Shown here: piece after piece, positions 2,652-38,444 of the stretch
How positions within the stretch are numbered: position 1 is the stretch's first letter
Layout of the letters: each line of letters opens with the position of its first letter
Source of the DNA: an uncultured Saprospiraceae bacterium
GTDB lineage: Bacteria; Bacteroidota; Bacteroidia; Chitinophagales; Saprospiraceae
Direction: 5' to 3'
Assembly: GCA_937927835.1 (NCBI GenBank)
Contig: CALGJS010000330.1
Location: 1 to 38,573, forward strand
Length of the DNA: 38,573 bases
Program-made: the position numbers and the translations under genes
The notes under the pieces: model-generated
What the model was told of the DNA's origin: nothing
The model's database searches: none
Seen by the model: the letters and a program-made list of their open reading frames with translations, nothing else

Positions 2652-3029
2652 TTATCCAATTATTGGACGCTCAATTTCTTTAGAGTCTGAAGCTCGTACT
2701 GTTGTTTTTCCTTTAGGTTTCTTATCAGAAGCAAGAACACTATCAATGATAGTTACGTCAATGGCAAAATCTCCAGGAGGTAAGGTTCCCAAATCGATGG
2801 TGTGTACAATTGGAGTCGCAATGCATAAACATTCTAGATTCGGATCGATCCCATAATTAATATTAATAGGCAATATCCCATCAGCATTTAATTGCGACGG
2901 AATAGGATCATGGCCCATTGCAATATAATTGGATTGGTCTAACATGGTGGTTACGTGCAGAAAATACTTGTCTGCTTGATCCATGTGAGTTTCCTTTAGT
3001 AGGCTGACTTGCGGTTCGAAATAATTCAT
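2652..3029 (-). CDS. Hypothetical small protein of unknown function
   Basis: I do not recognise this 125-residue protein. It has no signal peptide or membrane helix. The second half carries a beta-strand-like pattern (TIDLGTLPPGDFAIDVTIID) that recalls the last strands of an Ig-like sandwich, followed by a Lys/Glu-rich tail. Two starts are possible. The ATG at 3029 sits after an A-rich tract. The ATG at 2984 (residue 16, MDQADKYFLHV) has AAAGGA 7 nt upstream and may be the true start. It lies 125 bp downstream of the atypical sigma factor on the same strand and upstream of the two-component genes, so it may belong to the sigma/CHAT locus. That link rests only on position. Confidence 0.55.
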   Translation of the reverse strand: MNYFEPQVSLLKETHMDQADKYFLHVTTMLDQSNYIAMGHDPIPSQLNADGILPININYGIDPNLECLCIATPIVHTIDLGTLPPGDFAIDVTIIDSVLASDKKPKGKTTVRASDSKEIERPIIG

Positions 3030-3154: not shown

Positions 3155-4075
3155 TCAAGCTACCTGACTGATAAAGAATTGTTTCTTCCATCGCTTAAGA
3201 GAATCATGTAATCGCTTGCGACAGGTAGCTTCTTTCAGGTGTAGTAATTTCCCAATTTCTTTGAATCGCAATCCTTCTTCAAATCTTAATCTCAATAATT
3301 CATGTTCGTCGTTATGAAAGGTTTCCAAGAGTTTTTTAAATACTTCTTTATTAGGGCCTTCTAAGAGTTTTTTGAGAATTGGGCAGATGATTTCATTTCC
3401 TGAATTAAAATAATCTTGGGAATCTTTGGGATTTAATTTGGTTTCAAAGTCCATCAAGTCAGGATAGAAAACAAGTCCTTTCATTTTATTTCCCAGAGCT
3501 AAATATTTGTTTCTAGCGATCAAGAAAAAATAGGTAAACAGTCTAGATCTCATTGGGAATTCCAATTTTCCTTGTTCGATATTATTTTTCAAAACCATGA
3601 TGGCTTCTCCATAAATTTCTAGTGGGGCCACACTAAAATAGGAACCATATTTATTATTTAAAATAACCATCGTAGGCTCCTTATATTGACTAAAAAGATA
3701 GTAAAGGCATCGAGTGTGGTTGGCCTGAATTAGTTGTACTAATATCTCACCAGCCAGATAAGGAGCCACTTTGTTCATTTGGTTTTTTGAATCAGGAGAA
3801 TTAAAAGAATTGCACCCCATTACTAATAAAAGAGAGAAAAGAGTTTGATTTAAATTAAGTGGGCTTTGATTTAGATTATTGATCAGTCTAGGAAAGACTT
3901 CCTCAAAAACAGCTTGGATCTGAGTGGAACTCAACGTCTGGTTTGATTGAAAATAATCAATAAAATTTTTATTAAATTTTTTAAACGTCAACTGCCAAAC
4001 CATATTAGATCGATCCGTTTTTTTCAATAAGGCAGCTAAAACCGTATCATCAATAAGATATTTTGAATTCATCAT
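3155..4075 (-). CDS. Atypical sigma-70-family (ECF-like) factor with two region-2-like modules
   Basis: 306 residues, versus about 160-200 for an ordinary ECF sigma. The C-terminus (about 245-300) is a clear region-4 helix-turn-helix (LLRLRFEEGLRFKEIGKLLHLK, continuing EATCRKRLHDSLKRW) for -35 recognition. The middle (about 105-205) reads as region 2: an N-terminal helix pair, YGEAIMVLKNNIEQGKLEF in place of the usual DAED-VQE helix, and RLFTYFFLIARNKYLAL, the conserved 'YLFTIARN' segment. The first 95 residues follow the same pattern in more diverged form (LAALLKKTDRSNMVWQLTFK, then IQAVFEEVFPRLINNLNQ, then TLFSLLLVMGCNSF), suggesting a duplicated region 2. It is transcribed divergently from the CHAT gene across a 493-bp region. 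The start is ATG-ATG; the first was taken. It may control the CHAT locus; this is inference. Confidence 0.8.
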   Translation of the reverse strand: MMNSKYLIDDTVLAALLKKTDRSNMVWQLTFKKFNKNFIDYFQSNQTLSSTQIQAVFEEVFPRLINNLNQSPLNLNQTLFSLLLVMGCNSFNSPDSKNQMNKVAPYLAGEILVQLIQANHTRCLYYLFSQYKEPTMVILNNKYGSYFSVAPLEIYGEAIMVLKNNIEQGKLEFPMRSRLFTYFFLIARNKYLALGNKMKGLVFYPDLMDFETKLNPKDSQDYFNSGNEIICPILKKLLEGPNKEVFKKLLETFHNDEHELLRLRFEEGLRFKEIGKLLHLKEATCRKRLHDSLKRWKKQFFISQVA

Positions 4076-4166
4076 TGGAGGTTAATTTTGGTTTTTTGTA
4101 ATCACTTTACAATTACAAAGGTCTCCCAAATAGGCTCCTCAAAACACCCTTAATTATGATGATTTT

Positions 4167-4188
4167 ATCTACTCAATTTTGAGTAGAT
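4167..4188. promoter_or_regulatory. 22-bp palindrome, candidate operator
   Basis: Arms ATCTACTCAA (4167-4176) and TTGAGTAGAT (4179-4188) are perfect inverted copies separated by TT. The 2-base spacer is too short for an RNA hairpin loop but fits a dimeric DNA-binding protein. It lies 92 bp upstream of the sigma factor start and about 380 bp upstream of the CHAT gene. No regulator with a matching site is known to me. Confidence 0.45.
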
Positions 4189-4545
4189 TCTTATGTCAAT
4201 GAACTTCCTTTTATTCACTTCAATCAATTCTTCTCACCTAGTTTATTGTCCAAACTTTCTTTTCGTTACCGATTTAAGGCCAAAAAATATTTTTTCAAAT
4301 TCTGGTAACGGAATATTAAAATTTAATATTAGACCGTGAAAGCAATTAAGTAGATAATTGAACTTTACCCCAAATCCAATTTAGAACTAGGTCTCTAAAA
4401 AATTACTTTTAGAGATTTTTCAAAATAATTAAAACATTAATTCCATATTTTTTGCAACCAAACACACATTATTAAAAATAATAATTTTTTTTTAAACAAA
4501 GACACTTAGTATATTCAAATTTTTCACTATATTTAGGATGCCAAA

Positions 4546-4561
4546 TAGTACATTAGTACTA
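4546..4561. promoter_or_regulatory. 16-bp dyad at the CHAT gene start
   Basis: TAGTAC (4546-4551), spacer ATTA, GTACTA (4556-4561), perfect arms, ending 7 bp before the ATG at 4569. If the -7-like TATATTTA at 4528-4535 is used, the dyad overlaps the first transcribed bases and could act as an operator or occlude initiation. Confidence 0.35.
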
Positions 4562-4568
4562 GATCCAA

Positions 4569-6110
4569 ATGTTTACTACAAAAAAAAACCTTACTGATAT
4601 GGATTATATATTCATCGCATTTGCTAACAGTCAGGAAAACAGTTTGATGCAATTAGAAAACGAAGACGATATCGTTTACCGGCATCTCAACATGGGAAAG
4701 AAGAAATTTGACTATCATATTTATCGCCAATCGATGTCTTCGATAGATAAAATAAGTCAAGCCCTCACTGATCATCAAGATGAAATATCGATCTTTCTTT
4801 TTAGCGGACACGCTGGACTTAAACACCTTCTTTTAGATGATCAAATGGCACGAGCCGAAGGCATTGCTCACTCCTTATCACTTTGTCCCAATCTAAAATT
4901 GGTAATGCTCAATGGCTGTTCCACGGTGGGACATGTCAACTCGCTGCTTGAAAAAGGTATTCCTGTTGTTATAGCGACTTCTGCTCCGGTAGATGACAAC
5001 CGCGCGTATATGTTTTCGAATATCTTTTTCCAGATGCTTTCCAAAGGAGAGACGATTGAAGCTTCCTTTGAAAAGGCCGTTGGCAATGCCATGATAAAAT
5101 CAGAATTGACCATCCACCGAAGCCTAGCATTGGTCGAAGACCAACCACCTGAAACACCTACCTGGGGAATTTTTTACAAAGAGGAAAATAAAGCATTACT
5201 GAACTACTCATTGCCCTTGAAGCAAACGGAGGCTATGGAGGGAGCCAGTCTACAAAAAACAATCGAAGCTACTCCGAACTTTACCGTTCCACCATTTGAC
5301 AAAGGGATTCCAAGATATAAAATTGATATTCTAAGTTTGTCCAGACACGATCAAGCAGACATATTTGAAATTAATTTTCATAAAAAAACGGGTAATGCCC
5401 AACACTATTTTATCCATGCTAATAATCTTCAACTACCGAATAGTTTTGGATATCGGCTGGTTTTTCAATTAGAATTATGGCTTAAAAAGCTAGATAAAAA
5501 CATGCATTATGTAGCGCAGAATAATCATTTTGTCAAAATAAAAAACTGGAAATTTTCTTCGGATATGGGTATTAGCCAACGAAGAATAAAAGCATATTTT
5601 GAAGAACTTTTTGAATTGTCATCTATAGATAGTTTAATTGAATTAAAAAAGGAATATCCGCTCATAAAAAAGTACGATTACATTTCTACCATTTTTAAAA
5701 TTCATCAAGAAGAATGGAATGAGAATGCGGCAGCGGTTTTAAAATGGTTTATCAATGATTTTTGTAAAACGAATAGTGAAAATTCTACGAAATTTTTATT
5801 CTTTTTTATTATTGAAAAACATGTAGTAGAACTCCCTAGCGAAGCCCAAGAACAAGAGATTAATAATACGCTTCAAGAGATTGGGAAAATGGAAAATTGT
5901 ACCGTTTTTTCAGAGCTTCAACCAGTTAAAAAACTTCAGATCTTAAGATGGTTCGGAAACTTTGTGGACAAGGAAACCGAAATAAATCGCATGGTCCAGC
6001 AAATCCTCGATAATTATTCTAACGAAGTATCCAAAGGCATCAACATGAGTCACCTCGAAGATCAACTCTCCGAAATTATTGAAAAAGAAACTAAATACAA
6101 AGTGAAGTAA
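4569..6110 (+). CDS. CHAT-domain (caspase-fold) protease-like protein with pseudo-STAND C-terminus
   Basis: 513 residues. The N-terminal 200 form a CHAT domain: a first strand YIFIAFANS, the catalytic histidine in IFLFSGHAG (H81) and the catalytic cysteine in MLNGCSTVG (C117), so the His/Cys dyad is intact. Residues about 250-510 look like the inactive-STAND type region: LSRHDQADIFEINF, then a strand and YRLVFQLELWLKKL, and later FLFFFIIEKHVVEL with LQPVKKLQILRWF. This follows the fold of STAND NTPases but no Walker A loop is visible. STAND regions usually sense or oligomerise, so the CHAT peptidase may be held inactive until triggered. The true start may be the ATG at 4599 (MDYIFIAFANS). It lies 44 bp upstream of the large membrane-protein gene and is probably co-transcribed. 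Its substrate is unknown. Confidence 0.85.
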   Translation: MFTTKKNLTDMDYIFIAFANSQENSLMQLENEDDIVYRHLNMGKKKFDYHIYRQSMSSIDKISQALTDHQDEISIFLFSGHAGLKHLLLDDQMARAEGIAHSLSLCPNLKLVMLNGCSTVGHVNSLLEKGIPVVIATSAPVDDNRAYMFSNIFFQMLSKGETIEASFEKAVGNAMIKSELTIHRSLALVEDQPPETPTWGIFYKEENKALLNYSLPLKQTEAMEGASLQKTIEATPNFTVPPFDKGIPRYKIDILSLSRHDQADIFEINFHKKTGNAQHYFIHANNLQLPNSFGYRLVFQLELWLKKLDKNMHYVAQNNHFVKIKNWKFSSDMGISQRRIKAYFEELFELSSIDSLIELKKEYPLIKKYDYISTIFKIHQEEWNENAAAVLKWFINDFCKTNSENSTKFLFFFIIEKHVVELPSEAQEQEINNTLQEIGKMENCTVFSELQPVKKLQILRWFGNFVDKETEINRMVQQILDNYSNEVSKGINMSHLEDQLSEIIEKETKYKVK

Positions 6111-6154
6111 AGCGAAGCGAACTAAATCAACTAATTCTCTACAAATAACCAGTT

Positions 6155-9100
6155 TTGAAACCAAATACTTCCTACCAAGAAAACTATAAAACGTTGCCAA
6201 TTGCTACCAAGTTGGCGTACTGGCCTTTTTTAATTGGTCCTATCTTATTGATTGCTGGCCTTTGTTTTTTATTCATCGATTCTTATTTTAAAACTGTTAT
6301 CATCGCTTCTTCACTGATTCTTGTTGGTTCCTACGAGGCATTTCGACGGTTTCGACTAAAGGAAATTAAGAAACAACGATATACAATTCAAAAACCTTAT
6401 GCTTGGCAAATCAATGCACCTGAGCACCGACAACATGCTGACTTTGAGATGCTCAAAAGGCAATTAATCGAGTTACAGAATACCACCAATAAGTCGATCC
6501 TTTTCATCATAGAACGAGTAACACCGGAAGACCATCAAGCACATCTTTATGAATCTATTTTTCAAGATTTAAAGAAAGAAAATATAGTCGTAGAACGTTT
6601 TTTCCAACGTGGAGAAAATGAATTATTTTGGACCGAAGGATATCCAGATGAAATTAGTGCGGAAGAATTAACTATGAAATATGGGAGTTGGTTGCCTATT
6701 TTTTGTACTGATGGATTGCGTTTAATTGATGCAAATATTGAATCGCTTTCTGATGCGGTATTTCCTTTTTATGCTTGGAAACAACCCATCTTATTAACCA
6801 ATCGACCGGCATTATCTTGGAGTTATGAAGAAGAACTTTTATCAGTAATATTCACCATCATTTCTTTTAATCTTCCGGGGGTGGATGCCATCTCAAAATT
6901 AATTGGACGACCCTCTGGGCTCTATCAATTTCATTTACCAAATGAAAAACCAGAACTTATTATTAAAGACGATGAGCAAGAAATACCACAAAAACTAGAA
7001 GCACATTTTGGAAAATCACTAACAAGATGGATTGCGGCTACAGCCTTATGTTCAAAACTTGATTGGGACTTGACCTTAAAAATTGGAAAGTATCTTTCTA
7101 AAAATCATGATACACCGACTGATCATACACAACTAAGACAACTAAGTCGACTTGGATGGTTTAGAGTGGGGGAAATGCCGGAACAAGTTAGAAAACAATT
7201 AATCGAATATCTCCCTATTTCTTTACAAAATGAAATTAGAAGACTGGTAGTTCAAGCAATGGAAGCCTCTGCCCCACCACAGCCTTCACACGCACACAAT
7301 AGTTACCGAATGGAATTGGTAAGTCATAAATTACTCATTCCCGACTTTCCACAAAAAAACTTAAAAGAAGAGTTTTTTGAATTAAAATCTATGGGATATC
7401 TGGAAGAGGTTGGTGCTTCAGAAATAGTAAATTTAGATACTGGGACTTTCCATAAATTTTTACCTCCATTATTAGCGGAACGACTCTACAATAACGGGAA
7501 TGCCATGCTTGGCTGGAATATGAAAATGTTCCTCCCTTTGATATTCCTGATAACTTCCGCTTCTGCCATGGTGATGGATTTAATTGTGGATCAGAGAGGA
7601 CCAAAATCACCTACCACTAGTCAATTGAGTGGAAACATTCAGGGTTTGTTTGGTAATAAGGTGGAAGGCGCCACCGTGGTTAGCGAATTTGATATGACTA
7701 CCACAGATTACAACGGGGATTTTAAATTAGACACTCCTAGTGATTTTGATGGGCAAGCATTCAACGTTATTACAAAAAAAGAAGGCTATTTTAATCAGTC
7801 CCAAACGATAGAACCGAATCAAGGTAAACCTGCCATTACCTTATTACCCACAACGGTAGAAATAAAAGTAATAGACCAGAATTATAGAACTCGAAAAATT
7901 AATGATGCGATCGTAACTTTATTAACCAATGCTTCATCAGATAACTCCGTTCTTACGAAAAATGGAATTGCCACCCTACCACTCAAAAATAAATATGATC
8001 CAGCAGATGAGTTTAATGTATTCATTGAAAAAGAGGGATTTAAAGGTGAAAGCAAAACATTTCAATATAAGGATAAAAATAAACTGGTCTATCTTAAAGA
8101 GGAGATCATAACTAATGTCCCAGATCCAGATATTTCAATTCGAGGAAGAGTTACCAATCAATGTAATAATCCAGTAGAAAAGGTCCGAGTAAAAGTAGCC
8201 GGCTATCCTTCTGTACGTACAGGTAGAGATGGATTTTTTAATCTTAAAATTCCTAATACCAACAATACGGAAGAACTTAATTTCAAATTATCAAAAGAAG
8301 ATTATTATAGTTATTCAAACAGCTATACTTCCGATCAGTTAGGTTCAACCTTAACTTTTAAATTAATACCGAAAACGATTAAAATCAAAGTCCTTGATAA
8401 GGATAACAAAGTTATAAAAGGCGTAAAAGTCAAACTCAACAACACGACCTCTAGAACTTCCAATAGCAATGGGACTTGTATTTTCCCACTGGAAAAAGAT
8501 ACTAGATGTAGAATAAGCATTCAAATTGATCACAATGGTTATCACCCAATTAAGGAAGCATTTGATCTTGATGAAAAAACGATTGTTGTTAACTTAGACA
8601 AGAAAGACACCCCTGTCTGTAAATTTATTGGACAGGTTCAAGACAATTGTAATAAGCCTGTAAAAGGAGCAACTATCAAATTTGCAGGTAGTTCCACAAA
8701 AGCGATCTCCTCGGCGAATGGCAAAGCTACCACTAATTTGCGTTGTAATTCAATTGGTAATAGATTCGAAATATCTATTTCTAAACCAGGTTTCCACACA
8801 GAGAAAAAGCTTATTTCTAAAAATCAATTGAAGCAGTCACAGAATGTAAAATTATCAAGAAGCAATATCAAGGTAAAGATTTTACATGCTGTTAATAAAC
8901 GAGAAATTGGAGGTGCAACAGTCTCTTTAAAAGATGGAGCAATAGGAAAGATGATACCGAATGGTCAGTATTATAATGTTCCAATAAAAAAAGGCATAGG
9001 CTGCCAACAAACCTTAATTGTAGACCATAAAGCTTATGAGCCTTTTAGCAAAAGAATAGATCTAGGTAAAGAAAATTTGACAATAGAATTAACACCCAAA

Positions 9101-10360
9101 AGGTCTTATCAATTTAAAGGAATAATCACCAATCAGTGTGGCGCAGTTTTAGGCGAAGCAAAAGTAAGTCTTAAGGGTTATCCAGGAAGTAAAAGAACCG
9201 CAAAGGATGGAACTGTGAACATTGGGTTTACTCCTCCTGCTAATAAAGATAAGGTAACCGTTGTGATTTCCAATGCTGGCTATCATACAGAAACTCTAGA
9301 GATTAAACTCAACAAGCTCAAAACGACCCAAATGATTCCGTTATCAAGATCAAAGATCACGGTCCTTGTAACCAATCCAAATAACAAAAGACTAAGCGGT
9401 GTTAGGTTGCGTTTAGGTAGCAATAAATCTGGAACCACAGACGATAATGGTGCGTACATTTTTAACTTAAAGAAAGGAGAAAATTGTCGTCAAGATTTAA
9501 CCGCAATCCGAAATGGATATGAGAGCTTTTCCGATGTTGTTAATCTTAGAAATGGAAGGATTTCAATCAAATTGAACGGAAAAAAACTTACGAAATATGA
9601 ATTCCAAGGAACGATCATTAATCAATGTGGAAAATCAATAGCAGAAGCAAGTGTTCAGATCAAGGACCATTCGCAAGCCAGAAGAACTTCTAAAGATGGA
9701 AAGATCTCCATCTCTTTTACTACCTCAAAAGACAAGGTCGATATTATTGTTAAAAAAAGTGGTTTTCATCGTGAAATAAAGACTATAAGCATTAGTGAAA
9801 TAATGCAACCACACCAGATAAAGATATCAAAGAGTAGCGCGACTATTCTAGTGACCGAATCAAAACCCAATTCAAAGAAAATCATTGGTGCATCAATTTA
9901 TGTTAATAATGTTAAAAAGGGAATCACCAATGAGCAAGGAGAATGTACAATCGCATTAATCAAAAATTCGGGTTGTCCTCAACAACTAAAAATCACTAAA
10001 AGAGGATATACAACCTATTCGAATTATGAAGATTTCACCAGTAATTTTAGAAAAATAAAACTAATTAATGAAAGAGAGGAGGCTAAACCAGATATTACTT
10101 TTGAGATAAATGTAATAGTAAAAAGTCAAGCACAGAATGAAAGAATTGCGGTTGATTATGCGGATGGCACTAAAAAGGTATCCTTCAAAAATATAAAAGC
10201 AGGTCTTTACAGGTTCACTTTAAAGCGATCAGTAGACCCAAAACTCTATGATTATATTGACAAAGGTGGAAAATTAAGAGCAAGAATTTTAAATAACATT
10301 AGATTTACAAGGTCTCAAAATTTAAGCAAAAGTAATCCAAAGGTATTATTTAGATATTAA
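6155..10360 (+). CDS. Large three-TM membrane protein with five tandem pairs of carboxypeptidase-regulatory-like domains
   Basis: 1401 residues from a TTG start; no in-frame ATG exists before codon 99, and in-frame TTGs at 6194 and 6212 are alternatives. Two membrane helices (about 22-62) precede a 390-residue region. Its parts FCTDGLRLID, ILLTNRPALSWSYEEELL, LDWDLTLKIG (after W292) and LSRLGWFRVGEMP (around W335) recall, from memory, the cytoplasmic region of large Bacteroidota conflict-system proteins. A third helix (about 458-478) leads to five units of about 163 residues (485-1325). Each unit has two Ig-like carboxypeptidase-regulatory folds, with GATV.., DGxF/NG and 'GY/GF' turns. Units 2-5 each carry one cysteine in the first fold (C670, C832, C995, C1158) and one in the second (C785, C950, C1111, C1274); unit 1 has neither. 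Predicted topology: N-terminal region cytoplasmic, repeats extracytoplasmic. Probably works with the CHAT protein. Confidence 0.8.
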   Translation: MKPNTSYQENYKTLPIATKLAYWPFLIGPILLIAGLCFLFIDSYFKTVIIASSLILVGSYEAFRRFRLKEIKKQRYTIQKPYAWQINAPEHRQHADFEMLKRQLIELQNTTNKSILFIIERVTPEDHQAHLYESIFQDLKKENIVVERFFQRGENELFWTEGYPDEISAEELTMKYGSWLPIFCTDGLRLIDANIESLSDAVFPFYAWKQPILLTNRPALSWSYEEELLSVIFTIISFNLPGVDAISKLIGRPSGLYQFHLPNEKPELIIKDDEQEIPQKLEAHFGKSLTRWIAATALCSKLDWDLTLKIGKYLSKNHDTPTDHTQLRQLSRLGWFRVGEMPEQVRKQLIEYLPISLQNEIRRLVVQAMEASAPPQPSHAHNSYRMELVSHKLLIPDFPQKNLKEEFFELKSMGYLEEVGASEIVNLDTGTFHKFLPPLLAERLYNNGNAMLGWNMKMFLPLIFLITSASAMVMDLIVDQRGPKSPTTSQLSGNIQGLFGNKVEGATVVSEFDMTTTDYNGDFKLDTPSDFDGQAFNVITKKEGYFNQSQTIEPNQGKPAITLLPTTVEIKVIDQNYRTRKINDAIVTLLTNASSDNSVLTKNGIATLPLKNKYDPADEFNVFIEKEGFKGESKTFQYKDKNKLVYLKEEIITNVPDPDISIRGRVTNQCNNPVEKVRVKVAGYPSVRTGRDGFFNLKIPNTNNTEELNFKLSKEDYYSYSNSYTSDQLGSTLTFKLIPKTIKIKVLDKDNKVIKGVKVKLNNTTSRTSNSNGTCIFPLEKDTRCRISIQIDHNGYHPIKEAFDLDEKTIVVNLDKKDTPVCKFIGQVQDNCNKPVKGATIKFAGSSTKAISSANGKATTNLRCNSIGNRFEISISKPGFHTEKKLISKNQLKQSQNVKLSRSNIKVKILHAVNKREIGGATVSLKDGAIGKMIPNGQYYNVPIKKGIGCQQTLIVDHKAYEPFSKRIDLGKENLTIELTPKRSYQFKGIITNQCGAVLGEAKVSLKGYPGSKRTAKDGTVNIGFTPPANKDKVTVVISNAGYHTETLEIKLNKLKTTQMIPLSRSKITVLVTNPNNKRLSGVRLRLGSNKSGTTDDNGAYIFNLKKGENCRQDLTAIRNGYESFSDVVNLRNGRISIKLNGKKLTKYEFQGTIINQCGKSIAEASVQIKDHSQARRTSKDGKISISFTTSKDKVDIIVKKSGFHREIKTISISEIMQPHQIKISKSSATILVTESKPNSKKIIGASIYVNNVKKGITNEQGECTIALIKNSGCPQQLKITKRGYTTYSNYEDFTSNFRKIKLINEREEAKPDITFEINVIVKSQAQNERIAVDYADGTKKVSFKNIKAGLYRFTLKRSVDPKLYDYIDKGGKLRARILNNIRFTRSQNLSKSNPKVLFRY

Positions 10361-20891: not shown

Positions 20892-22607
20892 TCACTTTAA
20901 AATAATTTTACCACTCACAGCAGCAGCATCTTGGGTTTGTATTTGATATATATAAGTTCCAGTTGCCAAATCTTCCCGAGTTACCGTCACATTGGAAGAC
21001 TGGAGATTCTCTACTTTCCGAACCAATTTTCCATCCATTCGATAAAGACGGATGGTGGCGAAAGATTCGTTTTCGGACAATTGGAAATTAATAAGGTCGG
21101 TGGCAGGATTTGGAAAAACGGAAATTCCTATCTCTGCCATAACTTCCTCACTAATTCCAACCGTCAGGTTACAAAAACTATTGTTTAACGTGTTTGTGGG
21201 CACTGGCATATCTGCCGCCGCTATTAAAGCAGAAACATCTGGACAAGGTAAGGCTGGTTGAGGTTGAACTACTACGGCGAAGGTCATATTATTTGATTGG
21301 CCAGGAGACAACCTCATGGGGCCCATAGACATTAGAGATCGTTTATCTCCAATCGCAGTCTGTTCACTACACATAGACCATCCATTGGAAGCATCTGCCG
21401 GATTATCTGTGTAAAGAAAATTTGTAGGTTCATTATTTGGCGTCATAAAAGAACCACCATCGATTCTACGGCCAGTCAAAAACCTATAATATTCATAAGC
21501 TTGACTTGGATCAGTCCATCCAACGGGAGGTGGAGGAACAACCCCACCATTAAAATAAAAAATAGAACTATTCATCCCCAGTCTATCTGTTCCTTCTCTA
21601 TTTAATGGGCCTTCCAATAATTTCACCCCAAACAATGGTGGCTCCTCGTATGATTGCACACCGTTACAATTTCCACTTCCTTCCCCATCGATGGCATCAG
21701 CATTGTAAAAATAAGTTAGATTTTCTTCGGGTGCAGTTCCAATATAATCATCAACCGGACAACCCAAGTCCGCATCTAGCCAAATTCCAGCAAACATTGA
21801 ATCAATTGGCTCTACGCCTCTATTAATAAATTTTACATCATAAAAACTAGCATTGTTAATATTTTCCTCATTAGAATTATAAACATAGGCCAGAATTTGA
21901 ACTTCAATAGATATAGGATTTGCGTTAATATTATTAACATTTCCACCATCATGAAAAACCCACCAAACTGCCTGATCCGCACACTTTATTAGCGGATAAT
22001 CTCCGGCCATTGGATCATAAATGCCATCAAAATTTTGATCATAAAATGGTGCGAATCCACCCGCTAAGTCTGGCATCTCAAAGCCATAAACTGGATTAAA
22101 AAATGGATTGCCTTTGGCTGGCCAGCCGAGGATACTATTCGGCACTGGATTATCAATTTGTCCGTTGTCTTCAAAGTCTGTCCGAAAATCTTCAATCTCT
22201 ACACCATTTACTTTAAATAATCGATCCCAATTAGCACATAACTCAGAATCCGAGGATGGCGGATTCTGAGTATACGGCCCCGGCCAATATCCATTGGAAT
22301 CATCCGTAGCATAAGTTTTCGCGGCCAATTTTAAATTACCACCATCATCAAAACCACCAAACCATAAATTACCGGTGAATATCAATCCAGGCCCTTCACC
22401 AGTGGCTGTCTTTGGCCATTCATAAGCAGGCGTATTTCCACTAAGATCAAACGCCCATAGTCCAGAGCTACTTAAAGTGATGGTAGAATTAGCAGCGTCC
22501 AGCGTTTCCGTAGCAGTTCCAGCAGCACAGAATTGAGCATGATTGGTATTGATAATCCCAATAATGAAAATAAAAGATAAAAAAACGGAGAGGTGAAAAT
22601 TTTTCAT
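20892..22607 (-). CDS. Secreted protein with T9SS type A sorting domain (paralogue 1)
   Basis: 571 residues. Signal peptide about 1-24 (ending NHAQ). The mature protein begins FCAAGTATETLDAANSTITL and contains an aspartate-rich segment PFYDQNFDGIYDPMAGDYP, a calcium-loop-like pattern, followed by CADQAVWWVFHD and later a cysteine-containing core. The C-terminal sorting domain (about 495-571) has VFPNPATDLINFQLSE, IRLYRMDGKLV and ATGTYIYQIQT. It has no known enzymatic motif. It is a tandem paralogue of the next gene upstream, with the same order of motifs throughout. Likely a cell-surface protein secreted by T9SS. Confidence 0.88.
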   Translation of the reverse strand: MKNFHLSVFLSFIFIIGIINTNHAQFCAAGTATETLDAANSTITLSSSGLWAFDLSGNTPAYEWPKTATGEGPGLIFTGNLWFGGFDDGGNLKLAAKTYATDDSNGYWPGPYTQNPPSSDSELCANWDRLFKVNGVEIEDFRTDFEDNGQIDNPVPNSILGWPAKGNPFFNPVYGFEMPDLAGGFAPFYDQNFDGIYDPMAGDYPLIKCADQAVWWVFHDGGNVNNINANPISIEVQILAYVYNSNEENINNASFYDVKFINRGVEPIDSMFAGIWLDADLGCPVDDYIGTAPEENLTYFYNADAIDGEGSGNCNGVQSYEEPPLFGVKLLEGPLNREGTDRLGMNSSIFYFNGGVVPPPPVGWTDPSQAYEYYRFLTGRRIDGGSFMTPNNEPTNFLYTDNPADASNGWSMCSEQTAIGDKRSLMSMGPMRLSPGQSNNMTFAVVVQPQPALPCPDVSALIAAADMPVPTNTLNNSFCNLTVGISEEVMAEIGISVFPNPATDLINFQLSENESFATIRLYRMDGKLVRKVENLQSSNVTVTREDLATGTYIYQIQTQDAAAVSGKIILK

Positions 22608-22663
22608 AGCTTATATTTTTTGTTGATTCTATCTCAAGATATCTATATTCTTCCTACTAAACT

Positions 22664-22706
22664 AGGACCATTGTGTGAACGGGTCATTTGAGTATATGAA
22701 TAGTAA
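22664..22706 (-). promoter_or_regulatory. Upstream element shared by the two T9SS paralogues (copy 1)
   Basis: Written on the plus strand, CCATTGTGT (22668-22676), then AAC, GGTC, TTTG and TATGAA, ending near 22700, about 60-95 bp upstream of the ATG at 22607. The same words occur in the same order and at the same distance upstream of the paralogue (copy 2). Confidence 0.45.
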
Positions 22707-22735
22707 AGTTGAAATAGTAAGTGAAAATTCTATCA

Positions 22736-24436
22736 TTATTCTAAAATAATCTTACCACTCACCGAAGCTCCGGTTTTAGTTTGGATTTGATAAACATAAG
22801 TCCCAGTTGCCAAATCTTTTCGAAATATTCTCACGTTATAATTTTTCAAATTTTCCTCTTTCGTAACCAACTGTCCATCCATTCGATAAAGACGGATCGT
22901 GGCAAATGTTTCCTCTTCTGATAATTGAAAATTGATAAAATCACTGGCAGGATTCGGGAAGACCGACAGACCGATATCTTTAGTTAATACTGCATTAGTA
23001 CCAACCATCATATCACAATAATCACCGGGATTGGTAAACGTCCATAAATGCAAATTTGTATCATTGATCAGATCTGTAACACCGGGACAAGGCATACTAG
23101 GTTGTGGCTGCACGGTTACTGAAAAAGTCATTAGATTGGTAGTTCCAGGGGAAATATAATCAATTGGTCCAACAGATAAAAAAAAGCGTTGATCGCTGAT
23201 TGATGCCCCTTCACTACACATGGACCATTGATCCTCATTAGCAGGATTTCCAGGATACAGAAATTTTGTAATTTCGTTGTTTGGATTTAAGTAAGGAGCG
23301 CCATCTGCTCGAAGACCACTCATCACACGATAATATTCAAAAGCTTGGGTTGGATTAGGAGGAACCGGTGTGCTGCCATCTGGTAAAGCAATAAAACTAG
23401 AAATGGTATCAATATCTCCACCAAATTGATCAAGCGGTCCTCGTAACATTTTAATTCCAACCATCGGCGGCTCCTGCCCATAAGTAGAAATGCCTTGGCA
23501 GCTTAGACCAGACTGGCCGTCTACTGCATCCGCATTATAAACATAAACCAGATTTTCTTCTGGAACTACTCCCAAATAATCATCATAAGGACAACCCAAA
23601 TTTGGGTCTATCCATAATCCCATATAAACATCATTCAATGCTTCTTCTCCTCTGTGAATAGTTTTTATATCATAAAAGCTAGTGTTAGCAATATTACTTG
23701 ACGCTGATTCGTAGGCATAAGCCAATATCTGAACCTCAACTCCAATAGGATCTATATTTAAAAAACTAGTGTTTCCAATATCATTAAAAACCCACCAAAC
23801 TGCCTGATCAGCACATTTGATTTGTGGATAATCTCCTGCCATGGGATCATAAATATTATTACCATCCATATCATAAAATGGCGCAAGGCCTGAATCAGTT
23901 ACTGGCAAATCAAACCCATGAATATCAAAAAAGTGAGCGTTGTTCATAGCAGGCCAACCTAAAATATTGGCTGGAATTGGATCATCTAACTGATTGTTGT
24001 CATTATAATCTGCCAAAAAGCTTTCAATTTCACTTTGAGTCACTTTAAACAGTTTGTCCCAATTGGCACAGTCTTCATTATTAGTCGTTAAAGTGTTCGA
24101 ATGAATTGGGCCAGGCCAAAAGCCATTATTATCTCCTTGACCATATAGCTTTCCAGCCATTTTTAAATTTAAGCCATCATCATAACCACCCATCCAAAAA
24201 TTGCCTGTAGAAATTAATCCAGGTCCTTCAATCGGAATATCTTCATTATAAGGCCATTCATATGAGGTACTTCCAGAAGGGTCAAAGGCCCAAATACCCG
24301 TGCTACTGAGGGTTATTTTAGCATTGGTCGTATTGAGGGTTTCGGTGGCTGTTCCAGCTGCACAGTTTGGTTGTGCATTAATAAAATTTGCTTTTCCAAA
24401 TAGAATCAGGAAAATAATTAGGGTAAAATTTTTCAT
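22736..24436 (-). CDS. Secreted protein with T9SS type A sorting domain (paralogue 2)
   Basis: 566 residues. Signal peptide about 1-21 (ending INAQ). It matches paralogue 1 segment by segment: NCAAGTATETLNTTNAKITL, WAFDPSGS, PFYDMDGNNIYDPMAGDYP, CADQAVWWVFND, a C-terminal VFPNPASDFINFQLSE and ATGTYVYQIQT. The two genes lie head to tail with a 128-bp gap and probably arose by tandem duplication. The sorting domains are the most similar parts. No catalytic motif is visible; the Asp-rich loop suggests calcium binding. Surface or secreted function unknown. Confidence 0.88.
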   Translation of the reverse strand: MKNFTLIIFLILFGKANFINAQPNCAAGTATETLNTTNAKITLSSTGIWAFDPSGSTSYEWPYNEDIPIEGPGLISTGNFWMGGYDDGLNLKMAGKLYGQGDNNGFWPGPIHSNTLTTNNEDCANWDKLFKVTQSEIESFLADYNDNNQLDDPIPANILGWPAMNNAHFFDIHGFDLPVTDSGLAPFYDMDGNNIYDPMAGDYPQIKCADQAVWWVFNDIGNTSFLNIDPIGVEVQILAYAYESASSNIANTSFYDIKTIHRGEEALNDVYMGLWIDPNLGCPYDDYLGVVPEENLVYVYNADAVDGQSGLSCQGISTYGQEPPMVGIKMLRGPLDQFGGDIDTISSFIALPDGSTPVPPNPTQAFEYYRVMSGLRADGAPYLNPNNEITKFLYPGNPANEDQWSMCSEGASISDQRFFLSVGPIDYISPGTTNLMTFSVTVQPQPSMPCPGVTDLINDTNLHLWTFTNPGDYCDMMVGTNAVLTKDIGLSVFPNPASDFINFQLSEEETFATIRLYRMDGQLVTKEENLKNYNVRIFRKDLATGTYVYQIQTKTGASVSGKIILE

Positions 24437-36718: not shown

Positions 36719-37468
36719 TTATTCGGCTTTCCGTTCGTCAATAACCTTCATTAAGTCCATTGCATCTTCCGCCATTTCTTGCTTTCCTTTATTTCCATTC
36801 CAAGTAGCTACTTTAGATAAATACACTTTCGCTTCATCGTATTTTTTTGCATCTGTAAGTGCTAACCCTAAATACCATGTGGCAATATCTTGATAATTAC
36901 TTGTTGGTCTATCAAGTAACGTTTTAAATTGCCTGGCGCTTTGATCCGGTTGCTTGTTATATAAATAGGAAAGACCGAGGTAAAAATAATCTTCCTGATC
37001 TACTCCACCTTCCGCAACTAATTGTTCTAAGGAAGAAATCGTGGTAGCATAATCTTTATTTTGATAAGCTGCGTACGCTTCACTTCTAAGCGCTAAAGTG
37101 GATCGAGGTCCTTTTAAAACATCTCTAGGAAATGGTTTTTCATAATGCGCACTTAAAAGTTGGTCAACAGGTCCAAGTTGATTTACTGTATTTCCAATAT
37201 TTACATAAAAGAACAAAAGTATGCTGGCAGCAACTGCCAAGGCGGTAATCAGCAGGATTCTTTTACCATTCTTTTTATTATCCACTTTTGGAGTCGCAGT
37301 ATTTTCGCTTTCTCCATAATTATGTTTTTCCTTCAGAATTTTTTTCCATCGATCTCGTAGCAATTCTTCTTTATAAAAATCACTAATTATTTCTTTAGTT
37401 ATATCATCTGACTCCATACTAGTATTTTGGTCTTTCAAATAATCGTTAAATTTATCTATTGGTTTCAT
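36719..37468 (-). CDS. Single-pass membrane protein with TPR-like periplasmic domain, paired with sigma factor
   Basis: 249 residues. Cytoplasmic helical N-terminus (about 1-65: DDITKEIISDFYKEELLRDR), a membrane helix (about 69-90: ILLITALAVAASILLFFYV) and a periplasmic part with three to four TPR-like repeats (AYAAYQNKDYATTISSLEQL, YFYLGLSYLYNKQPDQSARQ, WYLGLALTDAKKYDEAKVYL). It starts 43 bp after the stop of the atypical sigma factor and on the same strand. The arrangement of a cytoplasmic segment, one helix and a periplasmic sensor suggests an anti-sigma function, but no known anti-sigma domain is seen. Confidence 0.8.
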   Translation of the reverse strand: MKPIDKFNDYLKDQNTSMESDDITKEIISDFYKEELLRDRWKKILKEKHNYGESENTATPKVDNKKNGKRILLITALAVAASILLFFYVNIGNTVNQLGPVDQLLSAHYEKPFPRDVLKGPRSTLALRSEAYAAYQNKDYATTISSLEQLVAEGGVDQEDYFYLGLSYLYNKQPDQSARQFKTLLDRPTSNYQDIATWYLGLALTDAKKYDEAKVYLSKVATWNGNKGKQEMAEDAMDLMKVIDERKAE

Positions 37469-37511
37469 AACCGAATTTTATATTGAATTGATAATCTATT
37501 TACAAAAATTT

Positions 37512-38444
37512 TTAATGATTAATAAATTGTTTATAAAATTTCTCACCAATATATTTTTTTAGTTTTTCTCTACATCGAGAGGCCTGCTTTCTTACGGCAG
37601 GATGGCTTTTGTTCATCTGCTTAGCAATTTCGACCATTTTCTTTTCTTCAAAATAAAATTGTCGAAGGAGGGAAGAACAATCATCGCAAAGTTTTTTTAC
37701 TGCCTCCCGAACCATTTCTTTAAACTCTCTCTCTACCAACTCATCGGAATCTTCAAGCTCATCATAAAATTCGTAAGTCTCAGAAAGTTCCGTAAGGGTA
37801 ATTTTTTTCTTTTGTTCTCTCTTGTAAAATTTGTTGATCGCTCTGGTGGTAAAATAACTCTGTAGATTTCCATATCTTATTTTATCCCTCGTTAGATCTG
37901 TTCGTATTTCTAACAACGCATCAATCGTACAATCGTAAGCTATTTGTTTACTACAACTGGTTTGACTTGAAATAATCGCCACACATTTTTCCAAATGCGC
38001 CAAATAAACTTTTTCAATTAAATCCTCATTCCCAGATTTCAATTTTTCGACTGCCACTTTGAATTCATTTTTAGTCAAACCAAAATTCTTTTGGATATTG
38101 TCTTCCGTTGGCAGGCTAGCTTCGCATTCAATTTTTAGAAAGTTAATTGCCTTTACAAAAAGATCATATTCCTTAAAAGGAGCCTCCATCTTTTTTATAT
38201 TATTCCGAACCCTTCTAAGTACACCAATACTCAAATCCTCTATATCATCTTTAAGCGCCGGATAAAGTTTATTCAACCAAATTGGAACTTGTTCTTTTAT
38301 GGGTCCAGTGATAACTCTATCAAAGGATTCATATTGACGCTTTAAAAGGTCAGTCTGTATAATATTTAAATCTTCTCCGCTAATCAAAATCTTAATTTTC
38401 AATTCACTAATTATTTTACGGTATGCAATCGTAATGGGTTTCAA
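37512..38444 (-). CDS. Atypical sigma-70-family factor with a second region-2-like module
   Basis: 310 residues. Region 4 (about 245-300): LCDDCSSLLRQFYFEEKKMV, EIAKQMNKSHPAVRKQASRC. Region 2 (about 128-215): LKSGNEDLIEKVYLAHLEKC, IAYDCTIDALLEIRTDL, LQSYFTTRAINKFYKREQKK. An upstream block (about 30-105) reads as a further region 2: LKRQYESFDRVITGPIKEQV, PALKDDIEDLSIGVLRRVRN, YDLFVKAINFLKIE, with the DDIED acidic motif. The whole layout matches the sigma factor at 3155-4075. The start is TTG (38442-38444); no ATG occurs in frame between an upstream stop and residue 80. It is followed by the TPR membrane protein. I infer that the pair is a sigma/anti-sigma unit. Confidence 0.78.
   Translation of the reverse strand: MKPITIAYRKIISELKIKILISGEDLNIIQTDLLKRQYESFDRVITGPIKEQVPIWLNKLYPALKDDIEDLSIGVLRRVRNNIKKMEAPFKEYDLFVKAINFLKIECEASLPTEDNIQKNFGLTKNEFKVAVEKLKSGNEDLIEKVYLAHLEKCVAIISSQTSCSKQIAYDCTIDALLEIRTDLTRDKIRYGNLQSYFTTRAINKFYKREQKKKITLTELSETYEFYDELEDSDELVEREFKEMVREAVKKLCDDCSSLLRQFYFEEKKMVEIAKQMNKSHPAVRKQASRCREKLKKYIGEKFYKQFINH

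What the first reader, a model, noticed from the sequence alone, without database searches (positions are those of the whole stretch)
3155..10360. Candidate undescribed system: twin-module sigma factor divergent from a CHAT/pseudo-STAND protein and a giant repeat-bearing membrane protein
Three unusual proteins share one locus. An intact CHAT His/Cys dyad is fused to a pseudo-STAND region. The next gene has two N-terminal membrane helices, a cytoplasmic region like that of large conflict-system membrane proteins, a third helix and ten extracytoplasmic Ig-like repeats. A sigma-like factor of odd design is divergent, with dyads between. CHAT and inactive-STAND domains are established parts of bacterial conflict and programmed-death systems; the use of a carboxypeptidase-regulatory array as the sensor side, with a dedicated sigma factor, is my inference. 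It would be an envelope-sensing protease switch.
Basis: partly seen in the sequence, partly recalled or inferred. Interest (0 to 1): 0.78.

Follow-up and report, generated by a model that had tools for sequence, protein, structure and literature searches.

The report
Membrane-tethered caspase-like defence switch, MoxR-less
A Saprospiraceae genome carries a caspase-like protease fused to a dead ATPase domain, next to a large membrane protein that could sense the cell envelope; it is a stripped-down relative of known but untested bacterial "suicide/defence" systems, beside an odd sigma factor whose relatives often sit near proteases of the same kind.

Summary
The three proteins are as described. 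P0002 (ORF 4569-6110, probable start 4599) is CHAT (His81/Cys117) plus a C-terminal domain without Walker A. Modelled, its halves match SAVED-CHAT and ORC/Cdc6 AAA+ proteins; PF19995 (iSTAND) hits 9 of 15 aligned rows at E<=1, not the window row. P0003 (6155-10360) has a TM hairpin, a degenerate CoxE-like vWA, a third TM and ten carboxypeptidase-regulatory repeats. In 30 of 41 loci holding its relatives a MoxR AAA+ gene is present, in 25 also iSTAND. This is the iSTAND-MoxR-vWA ternary conflict system of Kaur et al. 2020, so the core is not undescribed. The window is a variant: CHAT fused to iSTAND, no adjacent MoxR, and no ternary-type MoxR found in the (75% complete) genome or the 91% complete sister; it falls in a MoxR-less clade of six. 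The sigma factor has a fast-diverging degenerate sigma2-like N-module (44% against 86% identity). It is not seen with iSTAND/vWA outside the genus, but its nearest sigma relatives lie within 6 kb of a CHAT gene in 10 of 20 loci, against 0 of 20 controls. An envelope-triggered CHAT protease is likely; sigma release as its output is possible, unproven.

The parts
3155..4075 (-). sigma-70-like factor (306 aa): degenerate sigma2-like N-module (res 1-95), sigma2-like module (about 106-205), sigma4 (249-295)
   Evidence: PF08281 9e-7 over cut-off; TIGR02937 1e-10, just under its cut-off; module alignment; identity break 44%/86%
3791..4075 (-). fast-diverging N-terminal pseudo-sigma2 module
   Evidence: 44% identity to the sister species against 86% for the rest
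4167..4188 (.). 10+10 bp perfect inverted repeat with a 2-base centre, candidate operator of the sigma gene
   Evidence: core conserved at the same place in G004
4599..6110 (+). CHAT-iSTAND fusion protein (ORF open from 4569)
4599..5162 (+). CHAT caspase-like protease domain; His81 codon 4809-4811, Cys117 codon 4917-4919
   Evidence: PF12770 7e-7; 8tl0_D Z 12.5, 169 aligned; dyad 24 of 24
5313..6107 (+). inactive STAND (iSTAND) domain, no Walker A
   Evidence: 1w5t_A Z 12.4; PF19995 in 9 of 15 rows at E<=1, window row none; Walker A 0 of 29
6155..10360 (+). vWA-type membrane protein, 1401 aa, TTG start
6221..6346 (+). two-helix TM hairpin (about res 23-64)
   Evidence: model helices
6485..6889 (+). 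degenerate CoxE-like vWA domain (first MIDAS Asp replaced by Glu)
   Evidence: PF05762 in 18 of 32 aligned relatives at E<=1, best 1.6e-4, window row none; MIDAS column; MDN1-MIDAS Z 7.3 among equal-scoring unrelated rows
6890..7519 (+). conserved helical region of the vWA component (W-D-L-T-L, R-L-x-W-F motifs)
7520..7591 (+). third TM helix
   Evidence: model helix 455-478
7631..10024 (+). ten carboxypeptidase-regulatory/Ig-like repeats, predicted extracytoplasmic
2652..3029 (-). 125-aa protein without family match downstream of sigma, kept with it in the sister species (78%)

Best explanation
A two-gene, MoxR-less derivative of the iSTAND-MoxR-vWA ternary conflict systems. Shown by sequence or model: a CHAT protease with an intact dyad fused to an inactive STAND domain, adjacent to a membrane-anchored, degenerate vWA protein with a fast-diverging repeat array. 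Inferred: the array lies outside the inner membrane and senses an envelope insult or ligand; the signal passes through TM3 to the cytoplasmic vWA/helical region, which binds the iSTAND and holds CHAT inactive; on stimulation the iSTAND rearranges or oligomerises and frees CHAT to cut cytosolic target(s), giving dormancy or death or a protective response. Without MoxR, ATP-driven threshold setting would be replaced by direct mechanical or binding coupling. The sigma factor next door is most likely a CHAT-associated regulator, possibly downstream of CHAT, not a core part.
For: Linkage: 13 of 17 rows matching only the iSTAND part lie within 4 kb of a vWA-membrane match. MoxR-type AAA gene in 30 of 41 loci with the membrane protein, 25 of them also with iSTAND; Walker A in 30 of 30 such AAA ORFs. 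iSTAND: PF19995 in 9 of 15 aligned rows at E<=1, best 3.6e-9, and in the CHAT-iSTAND homologue L113 at 1.7e-10, over cut-off. VWA_CoxE in 18 of 32 at E<=1. Structure: CHAT and ORC-like halves, Z 12.5 and 12.4; Foldseek's own top rows for P0002 are AAA+ proteins. MoxR absence: CHAT-iSTAND and vWA ORFs lie 44 bp apart; best ternary-MoxR profile score 176 bits in G000 and 177 in G004, against 362-511 for ternary MoxR genes of G042, G067 and G115. MoxR-less clade: window, G004 and G115:C910 (support 1.0), joined to three more without adjacent MoxR (0.84). Divergence from G004: ectodomain 35%, vWA 76%, iSTAND 83%, CHAT 90%, as for a sensor. Patchy: P0003 relatives in 32 of 198 genomes, 2 of 7 in the genus, own genome counted.
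Against: The window's own iSTAND and vWA stretches do not reach these Pfam models at E<=1; membership rests on relatives and models. The vWA fold search is ambiguous: HGPRT, type II dehydroquinase and receptor rows score as high as MDN1-MIDAS or nearly so, and Foldseek gave no reliable match. The CHAT half of the model has low confidence (blocks of 29-72 pLDDT). hhalign of A5 to L113's region is moderate (P 4e-5, probability 70). G000 is only 75% complete, so a distant MoxR could be missed. Other loci outside the clade also lack MoxR (L107, L111, L135; L104 and L106 begin at or next to a contig end), so MoxR loss is not a clean clade mark. The 41 loci were fetched by the membrane protein, so their co-occurrence counts are conditional on it. 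No defence phenotype has been tested; PADLOC gave only one weak match.
Confidence: 0.62

Rival explanations
1. The sigma factor is the output. On sensing, CHAT cuts a sigma inhibitor, or the built-in degenerate sigma2-like N-module, and frees the sigma factor to run a protective regulon, as Csx29 (TPR-CHAT) cuts Csx30 to free CASP-sigma.
For: Relatives of this sigma lie within 6 kb of a CHAT ORF in 10 of 20 loci against 0 of 20 control sigmas (Fisher p 4e-4). All four genomes with a strong full-length twin sigma have a CHAT nearby: window 0.5 kb, G004 about 3.7 kb, G056 divergent from CHAT+nSTAND1, G036 one gene away from a CHAT-TPR gene. N-module diverges at 44% against 86%. Conserved dyad upstream of sigma. 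Craspase precedent (PMC10028731, abstract and passages).
Against: None of the 20 related sigma loci holds an iSTAND/vWA hit; a secreted tyrosinase-like gene separates sigma and CHAT in G004. Related sigmas often have their own TM protein like the window's 36719-37468 or its G036 counterpart, a putative anti-sigma (11 of 20 loci, 4 of the 10 with CHAT), but no such gene was found beside P0001. No substrate known.
Confidence: 0.22
2. The system still uses a MoxR encoded elsewhere (a general MoxR), so it is a normal ternary system with a split locus.
For: Each of five MoxR-less genomes has a MoxR-like AAA match of general level (best 115-180 bits in G000, G004, G078, G088, G093); G000 is incomplete.
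Against: Those scores are far below ternary MoxR (362-511 bits; other MoxR-like matches reach at most 221 bits, in G042); G004, G078, G088 and G093 are 91-99% complete and also lack one; MoxR is normally in the locus (30 of 41).
Confidence: 0.15
3. A decaying remnant or a non-immune envelope-homeostasis module: the degenerate vWA and missing MoxR mean loss of the conflict function.
For: First MIDAS Asp lost in 5 of 6 MoxR-less clade members against 8 of 36 others (p 0.007, not corrected for relatedness); close relatives in G088 and G078 appear without an iSTAND hit in the locus.
Against: CHAT dyad and reading frames intact and CHAT 90% conserved between two species; DxSxS is degenerate in the whole family, also beside MoxR.
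Confidence: 0.15

Closest known systems
iSTAND-MoxR-vWA ternary conflict systems (Kaur et al. 2020, PMC7159879)
   Same: iSTAND third component with an N-terminal caspase-superfamily peptidase; CoxE-type vWA component with N-terminal TM helices and a TM followed by further domains; reported in Bacteroidetes (passages)
   Different: MoxR missing; peptidase is CHAT (the word CHAT is absent from the main text, though 'caspase-like' could include it; supplements not seen); ectodomain is a carboxypeptidase-regulatory array; vWA MIDAS eroded
Craspase / CASP (Csx29-Csx30-CASP-sigma), type III-E CRISPR (PMC10028731, abstract and passages)
   Same: CHAT protease encoded near a sigma factor
   Different: CRISPR effector partner there; CHAT here is fused to iSTAND and not to TPR; no Csx30 search was made here
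SAVED-CHAT (PDB 8tl0)
   Same: CHAT fold, Z 12.5, 22% identity over 169 residues
   Different: input domain is SAVED (nucleotide sensing, recalled), not iSTAND plus membrane sensor
CHAT + nSTAND1 pairs of relatives (Pfam-scanned: L139, L142, L153)
   Same: CHAT domains 35-42% identical to the window's; one pair is divergent from a twin sigma in G056
   Different: separate nSTAND1 NTPase with TM/TPR, or WD40 in the next gene; no vWA-membrane hit in these loci
BREX BrxB-type iSTAND (PMC12839542, passages)
   Same: inactive STAND lacking Walker motifs, proposed sensor/regulator
   Different: partner is PglZ nuclease machinery, not CHAT/vWA

Membership tests
iSTAND-MoxR-vWA ternary system | iSTAND third component with eroded Walker motifs | tested here: met
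   ORC/Cdc6-like fold; no Walker A in 29 of 29; PF19995 in 9 of 15 rows at E<=1, window row itself negative
iSTAND-MoxR-vWA ternary system | vWA (CoxE-type) component | tested here: inconclusive
   PF05762 in 18 of 32 relatives at E<=1, window row none; fold search ambiguous
iSTAND-MoxR-vWA ternary system | MoxR AAA+ partner | tested here: not met
   no such gene between or beside; no ternary-type MoxR in G000 (75% complete) or G004 (91%). Hence filed as a derivative, not a member
iSTAND-MoxR-vWA ternary system | N-terminal peptidase/EAD/signalling domain on the iSTAND protein | tested here: met
   CHAT PF12770 7e-7 and 8tl0 match; in the family EAD on 13 of 29 and CHAT on 4 of 29 iSTAND ORFs
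CHAT protease | His/Cys dyad on caspase fold | tested here: met
   H81, C117; 24 of 24 aligned; 8tl0_D Z 12.5, on a low-confidence half of the model
Craspase-like CHAT/anti-sigma/sigma module | cleavable sigma inhibitor beside the sigma gene | tested here: inconclusive
   next gene downstream of P0001 is P0004, without family match; its role is unknown
Craspase-like CHAT/anti-sigma/sigma module | CHAT cleaves inhibitor and frees sigma | not testable with these tools
   needs biochemistry
ECF-type sigma factor | sigma2 + sigma4 | tested here: inconclusive
   sigma4: PF08281 over cut-off; whole: TIGR02937 41.3 bits against cut-off 42.9; no Pfam sigma2 hit on P0001, only 3e-4 on the G036 relative, under its cut-off
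Anti-phage defence | protects against phage | not testable with these tools
   PADLOC: only a weak Specificity_I match at E 0.0014, taken as chance

The most novel reading that the evidence does not exclude
P0001 is a one-piece sigma/anti-sigma: its degenerate sigma2-like N-module masks the real sigma2, and the neighbouring envelope-sensing CHAT-iSTAND protease (or CHAT proteases generally in Saprospiraceae) cuts the linker near residues 88-104 to release an active sigma factor. This would be a CRISPR-independent protease-to-transcription switch.
Probability: 0.1. Interest if true: 0.8.

Novelty: new variant of a known kind. Interest (0 to 1): 0.5.

Why it matters
In the published proposal MoxR-vWA is the threshold-setting switch of the ternary conflict systems (PMC8195603, passages). 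A clade that seems to lack MoxR, here with the protease on the iSTAND and the vWA in the membrane, offers a minimal two-protein system in which signal transfer could be studied directly. The enrichment of CHAT genes beside one sigma subfamily suggests that CHAT-controlled transcription, known from Craspase, may be wider than CRISPR.

Tried and rejected
Rejected: wholly undescribed system (published ternary core). Rejected: sigma factor as a core component. Rejected: Sigma70-type promoters as evidence (chance level). PADLOC Specificity_I hit on P0002 (E 0.0014) and RsbW NCBIfam hits on P0003 (E 0.05-0.1) taken as chance. No direct DNA repeats of 30 bases or more in P0003's gene, so no sign of recent array expansion. 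PDB sequence searches were empty or weak. The Chlorobi third components could not be united with this iSTAND (hhalign P 0.046, probability 1), although their MoxR and vWA genes match the profiles. CHAT rows added to A3 misaligned and were dropped in A5. A VMAP component and a Csx30 homologue were not searched for. Fold search found no vWA match standing clear of unrelated rows; that is not evidence against vWA. The sigma-CHAT linkage could not be computed because their listings were cut, so searches were used.

Limits of the linkage test: test loci were the 20 best non-twin rows; control loci were the first 20 rows from genomes with at least 10 CHAT matches, a rule of mine. The two sets come largely from different genomes, the CHAT content of most test genomes was not counted, and several loci of both sets reach contig ends. 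One search also holds a few weak matches that cover the N-module (G106:C56, G011:C39, G029:C121, G056:C147; E 6e-7 to 7e-5), which I did not follow. A8 was made and not used.
Full report
WHAT IS THERE. It is taken as Saprospiraceae because the same-genus contig G004:C42 has the length of CALFWZ010000042.1, titled uncultured Saprospiraceae bacterium, which carries the same genes. P0001 (3155-4075, minus) is a sigma-like protein; P0002 (ORF 4569-6110, plus) carries CHAT; P0003 (6155-10360, plus, TTG start) is the large repeat-bearing membrane protein. The sister-species protein starts at the position of window Met11, and its match upstream holds a stop, so 4599 is the likelier start of P0002.

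P0002. PF12770 CHAT reaches 7e-7, over its cut-off. His81 and Cys117 are present, and both columns are conserved in 24 of 24 CHAT ORFs of the iterative family. The AlphaFold model has mean pLDDT 63.9; blocks of residues 261-450 lie at 74-94, while the CHAT half lies at 29-72. In the second-look structural alignment residues 9-198 match SAVED-CHAT (8tl0_D, Z 12.5, rmsd 3.5, 169 aligned) and residues 249-513 match ORC2/Cdc6-type AAA+ proteins (1w5t_A, Z 12.4, rmsd 5.1, 241 aligned); Foldseek's own top rows are NSF-type AAA+ proteins. The C-terminal family lacks Walker A in 29 of 29 members, whereas 30 of 30 of the neighbouring AAA ORFs have it. Pfam's iSTAND model (PF19995) hits 9 of 15 rows of the alignment at E<=1, best 3.6e-9, though not the window row. 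It also hits the CHAT-iSTAND homologue L113 at 1.7e-10, over cut-off; A5, built without L113, aligns to that region with hhalign P 4e-5 and probability 70.

P0003. The N-terminal region (model of residues 2-490, pLDDT 78.9) has a helical hairpin, a Rossmann-like core, a helical region and a further long helix. Structural matches of the core do not single out one fold: MDN1-MIDAS (a vWA) scores Z 7.3 with the longest alignment of the 50 rows (161), but HGPRT rows score as high or higher. Sequence relatives say more: VWA_CoxE hits 18 of 32 aligned relatives at E<=1, best 1.6e-4, window row none. A Chlorobiaceae relative has a weak VWA_CoxE match (E 0.047) and an FGE-sulfatase domain (E 7e-63); an FGS domain is the commonest end that Kaur et al. 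report for this vWA component (that FGS is this domain is my reading). After the third helix come ten repeats at 493-1290. Against the sister species the ectodomain keeps 35% identity (624 aligned columns), the vWA region 76%, iSTAND 83%, CHAT 90%.

CONTEXT. Among 198 genomes (own included), P0002 has matches in 53, P0003's N-terminal region in 32 and P0001 in 28; many P0002 matches are to CHAT alone and most P0001 matches are weak sigma matches. In the genus 2 of 7 genomes carry each of the three. Of the 17 rows that match only P0002's C-terminal part, 13 have a P0003-type match on the same contig within 4 kb; the other 4 (G105, G037, G070, G113) do not. I read 60 loci plus the window; 40 of the 60 were fetched because of the membrane protein, 20 because of CHAT or the sigma factor. 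Of 41 loci with the membrane/vWA protein, 30 have a MoxR-type AAA gene on the same strand (29 within 1.2 kb), 25 of these also an iSTAND ORF, and 18 of these also a caspase, EAD or CHAT hit in the locus. iSTAND ORFs carry an N-terminal EAD in 13 of 29 and CHAT in 4 of 29: window, G004, L113, L114; three loci have a separate caspase-EAD gene. This is the architecture that Kaur et al. 2020 describe as the iSTAND MoxR-vWA ternary system, including TM helices at the vWA N-terminus in about 28% and a TM followed by PEGA/OmpA/PASTA domains (passages of PMC7159879). 'CHAT' does not occur in the main text of the 2020 paper, and in the 2021 paper only within an author's name; CHAT may be covered there by 'caspase-like', and I could not see the supplements. 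My searches (showing only their top rows) and the passages read showed no CHAT-iSTAND fusion; that is not proof of absence. PMC10907252 (passages) reports a CHAT in a DGR target of a related conflict locus.

THE VARIANT. In the window, CHAT-iSTAND and vWA ORFs are 44 bp apart with no MoxR gene. A profile of ternary MoxR scores at most 176 bits in the window's genome and 177 in the sister, against 362-511 bits for the ternary MoxR genes of G042, G067 and G115; G078, G088 and G093, which carry other MoxR-less clade members, have at most 134, 180 and 115 bits. Other MoxR-like genes reach 221 bits (in G042). On the tree, window, G004 and G115:C910 group with support 1.0 and join L112, L125 and L127 with 0.84, all without adjacent MoxR; of these three only L125 has an iSTAND hit. 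CHAT-iSTAND proteins fall in three separate places, suggesting repeated acquisition of CHAT. L107, L111 and L135 also lack MoxR and lie elsewhere; L104 and L106 start at or beside contig ends. The first MIDAS Asp is kept by 1 of 6 of the clade and 28 of 36 others (p 0.007, uncorrected for relatedness), yet the whole family has only a degenerate motif.

THE SIGMA FACTOR. The N-terminal about 95 residues align in register with the sigma2-like module (P 6e-4, probability 12) and diverge far faster (44% against 86%). Strong full-length twin matches occur in 4 of 198 genomes, five places, two of them on apparently duplicate contigs of G056. Each has a CHAT gene nearby, but only window and G004 have the iSTAND/vWA genes there. 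In G004 a secreted tyrosinase-like gene separates sigma and CHAT. Testing more widely, the 20 best other sigma matches have a CHAT ORF within 6 kb in 10 of 20 loci; 20 control sigmas from CHAT-rich genomes have 0 of 20 (Fisher p 4e-4); none of the 40 has vWA or iSTAND hits. In 11 of the 20 test loci there is a protein resembling the window's own 36719-37468 protein or its G036 counterpart, a possible anti-sigma; 4 of these are among the 10 loci with CHAT. A perfect dyad lies 92-113 bp upstream of the sigma start and its core is conserved in G004 at the same distance; there the divergent gene is not CHAT, so the dyad goes with sigma.

MECHANISM. Shown: domain make-up, linkage of iSTAND and vWA, lack of adjacent MoxR, relative divergence rates. 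Inferred: sensing by the ectodomain, transmission through TM3 and vWA to iSTAND, release of CHAT. Only inferred by analogy with Craspase (PMC10028731, abstract and passages): CHAT acting on a sigma inhibitor or on the sigma itself.

VERDICT. Observation confirmed; interpretation partly supported; a new variant of a known kind, with an open and testable CHAT-sigma link.

Noticed in passing
36719-38444: A second 310-aa sigma-like gene (37512-38444; sigma4 matches under Pfam's cut-off) followed by a TM protein (36719-37468) whose relatives lie beside sigma genes elsewhere.
   Followed up: partly
L113, L133, L170 (vWA membrane proteins): Some vWA membrane proteins carry a caspase (Peptidase_C14-type) region at the C-terminus (Pfam for L170).
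   Followed up: no
L123:4912-11130: Two tandem vWA-membrane genes in one locus with one MoxR gene.
   Followed up: no
L096:11075-13849: Secreted tyrosinase-like protein with SprB repeats and a type IX sorting tail between the sigma and CHAT genes of the sister species.
   Followed up: partly
L112:5198-7915: A vWA-membrane protein next to PorP/SprF and PKD-CHU_C genes, without an iSTAND hit.
   Followed up: no
L174-L189 (mostly Chlorobiaceae records): MoxR plus vWA-type pairs, mostly without TM helices, with a third component that could not be united with this iSTAND.
   Followed up: partly
2652-3029: 125-aa protein without family match, kept downstream of the sigma gene in the sister species.
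   Followed up: no
20892-24436: Two adjacent proteins (571 and 566 aa) that look alike by eye, apparently a tandem duplication.
   Followed up: no
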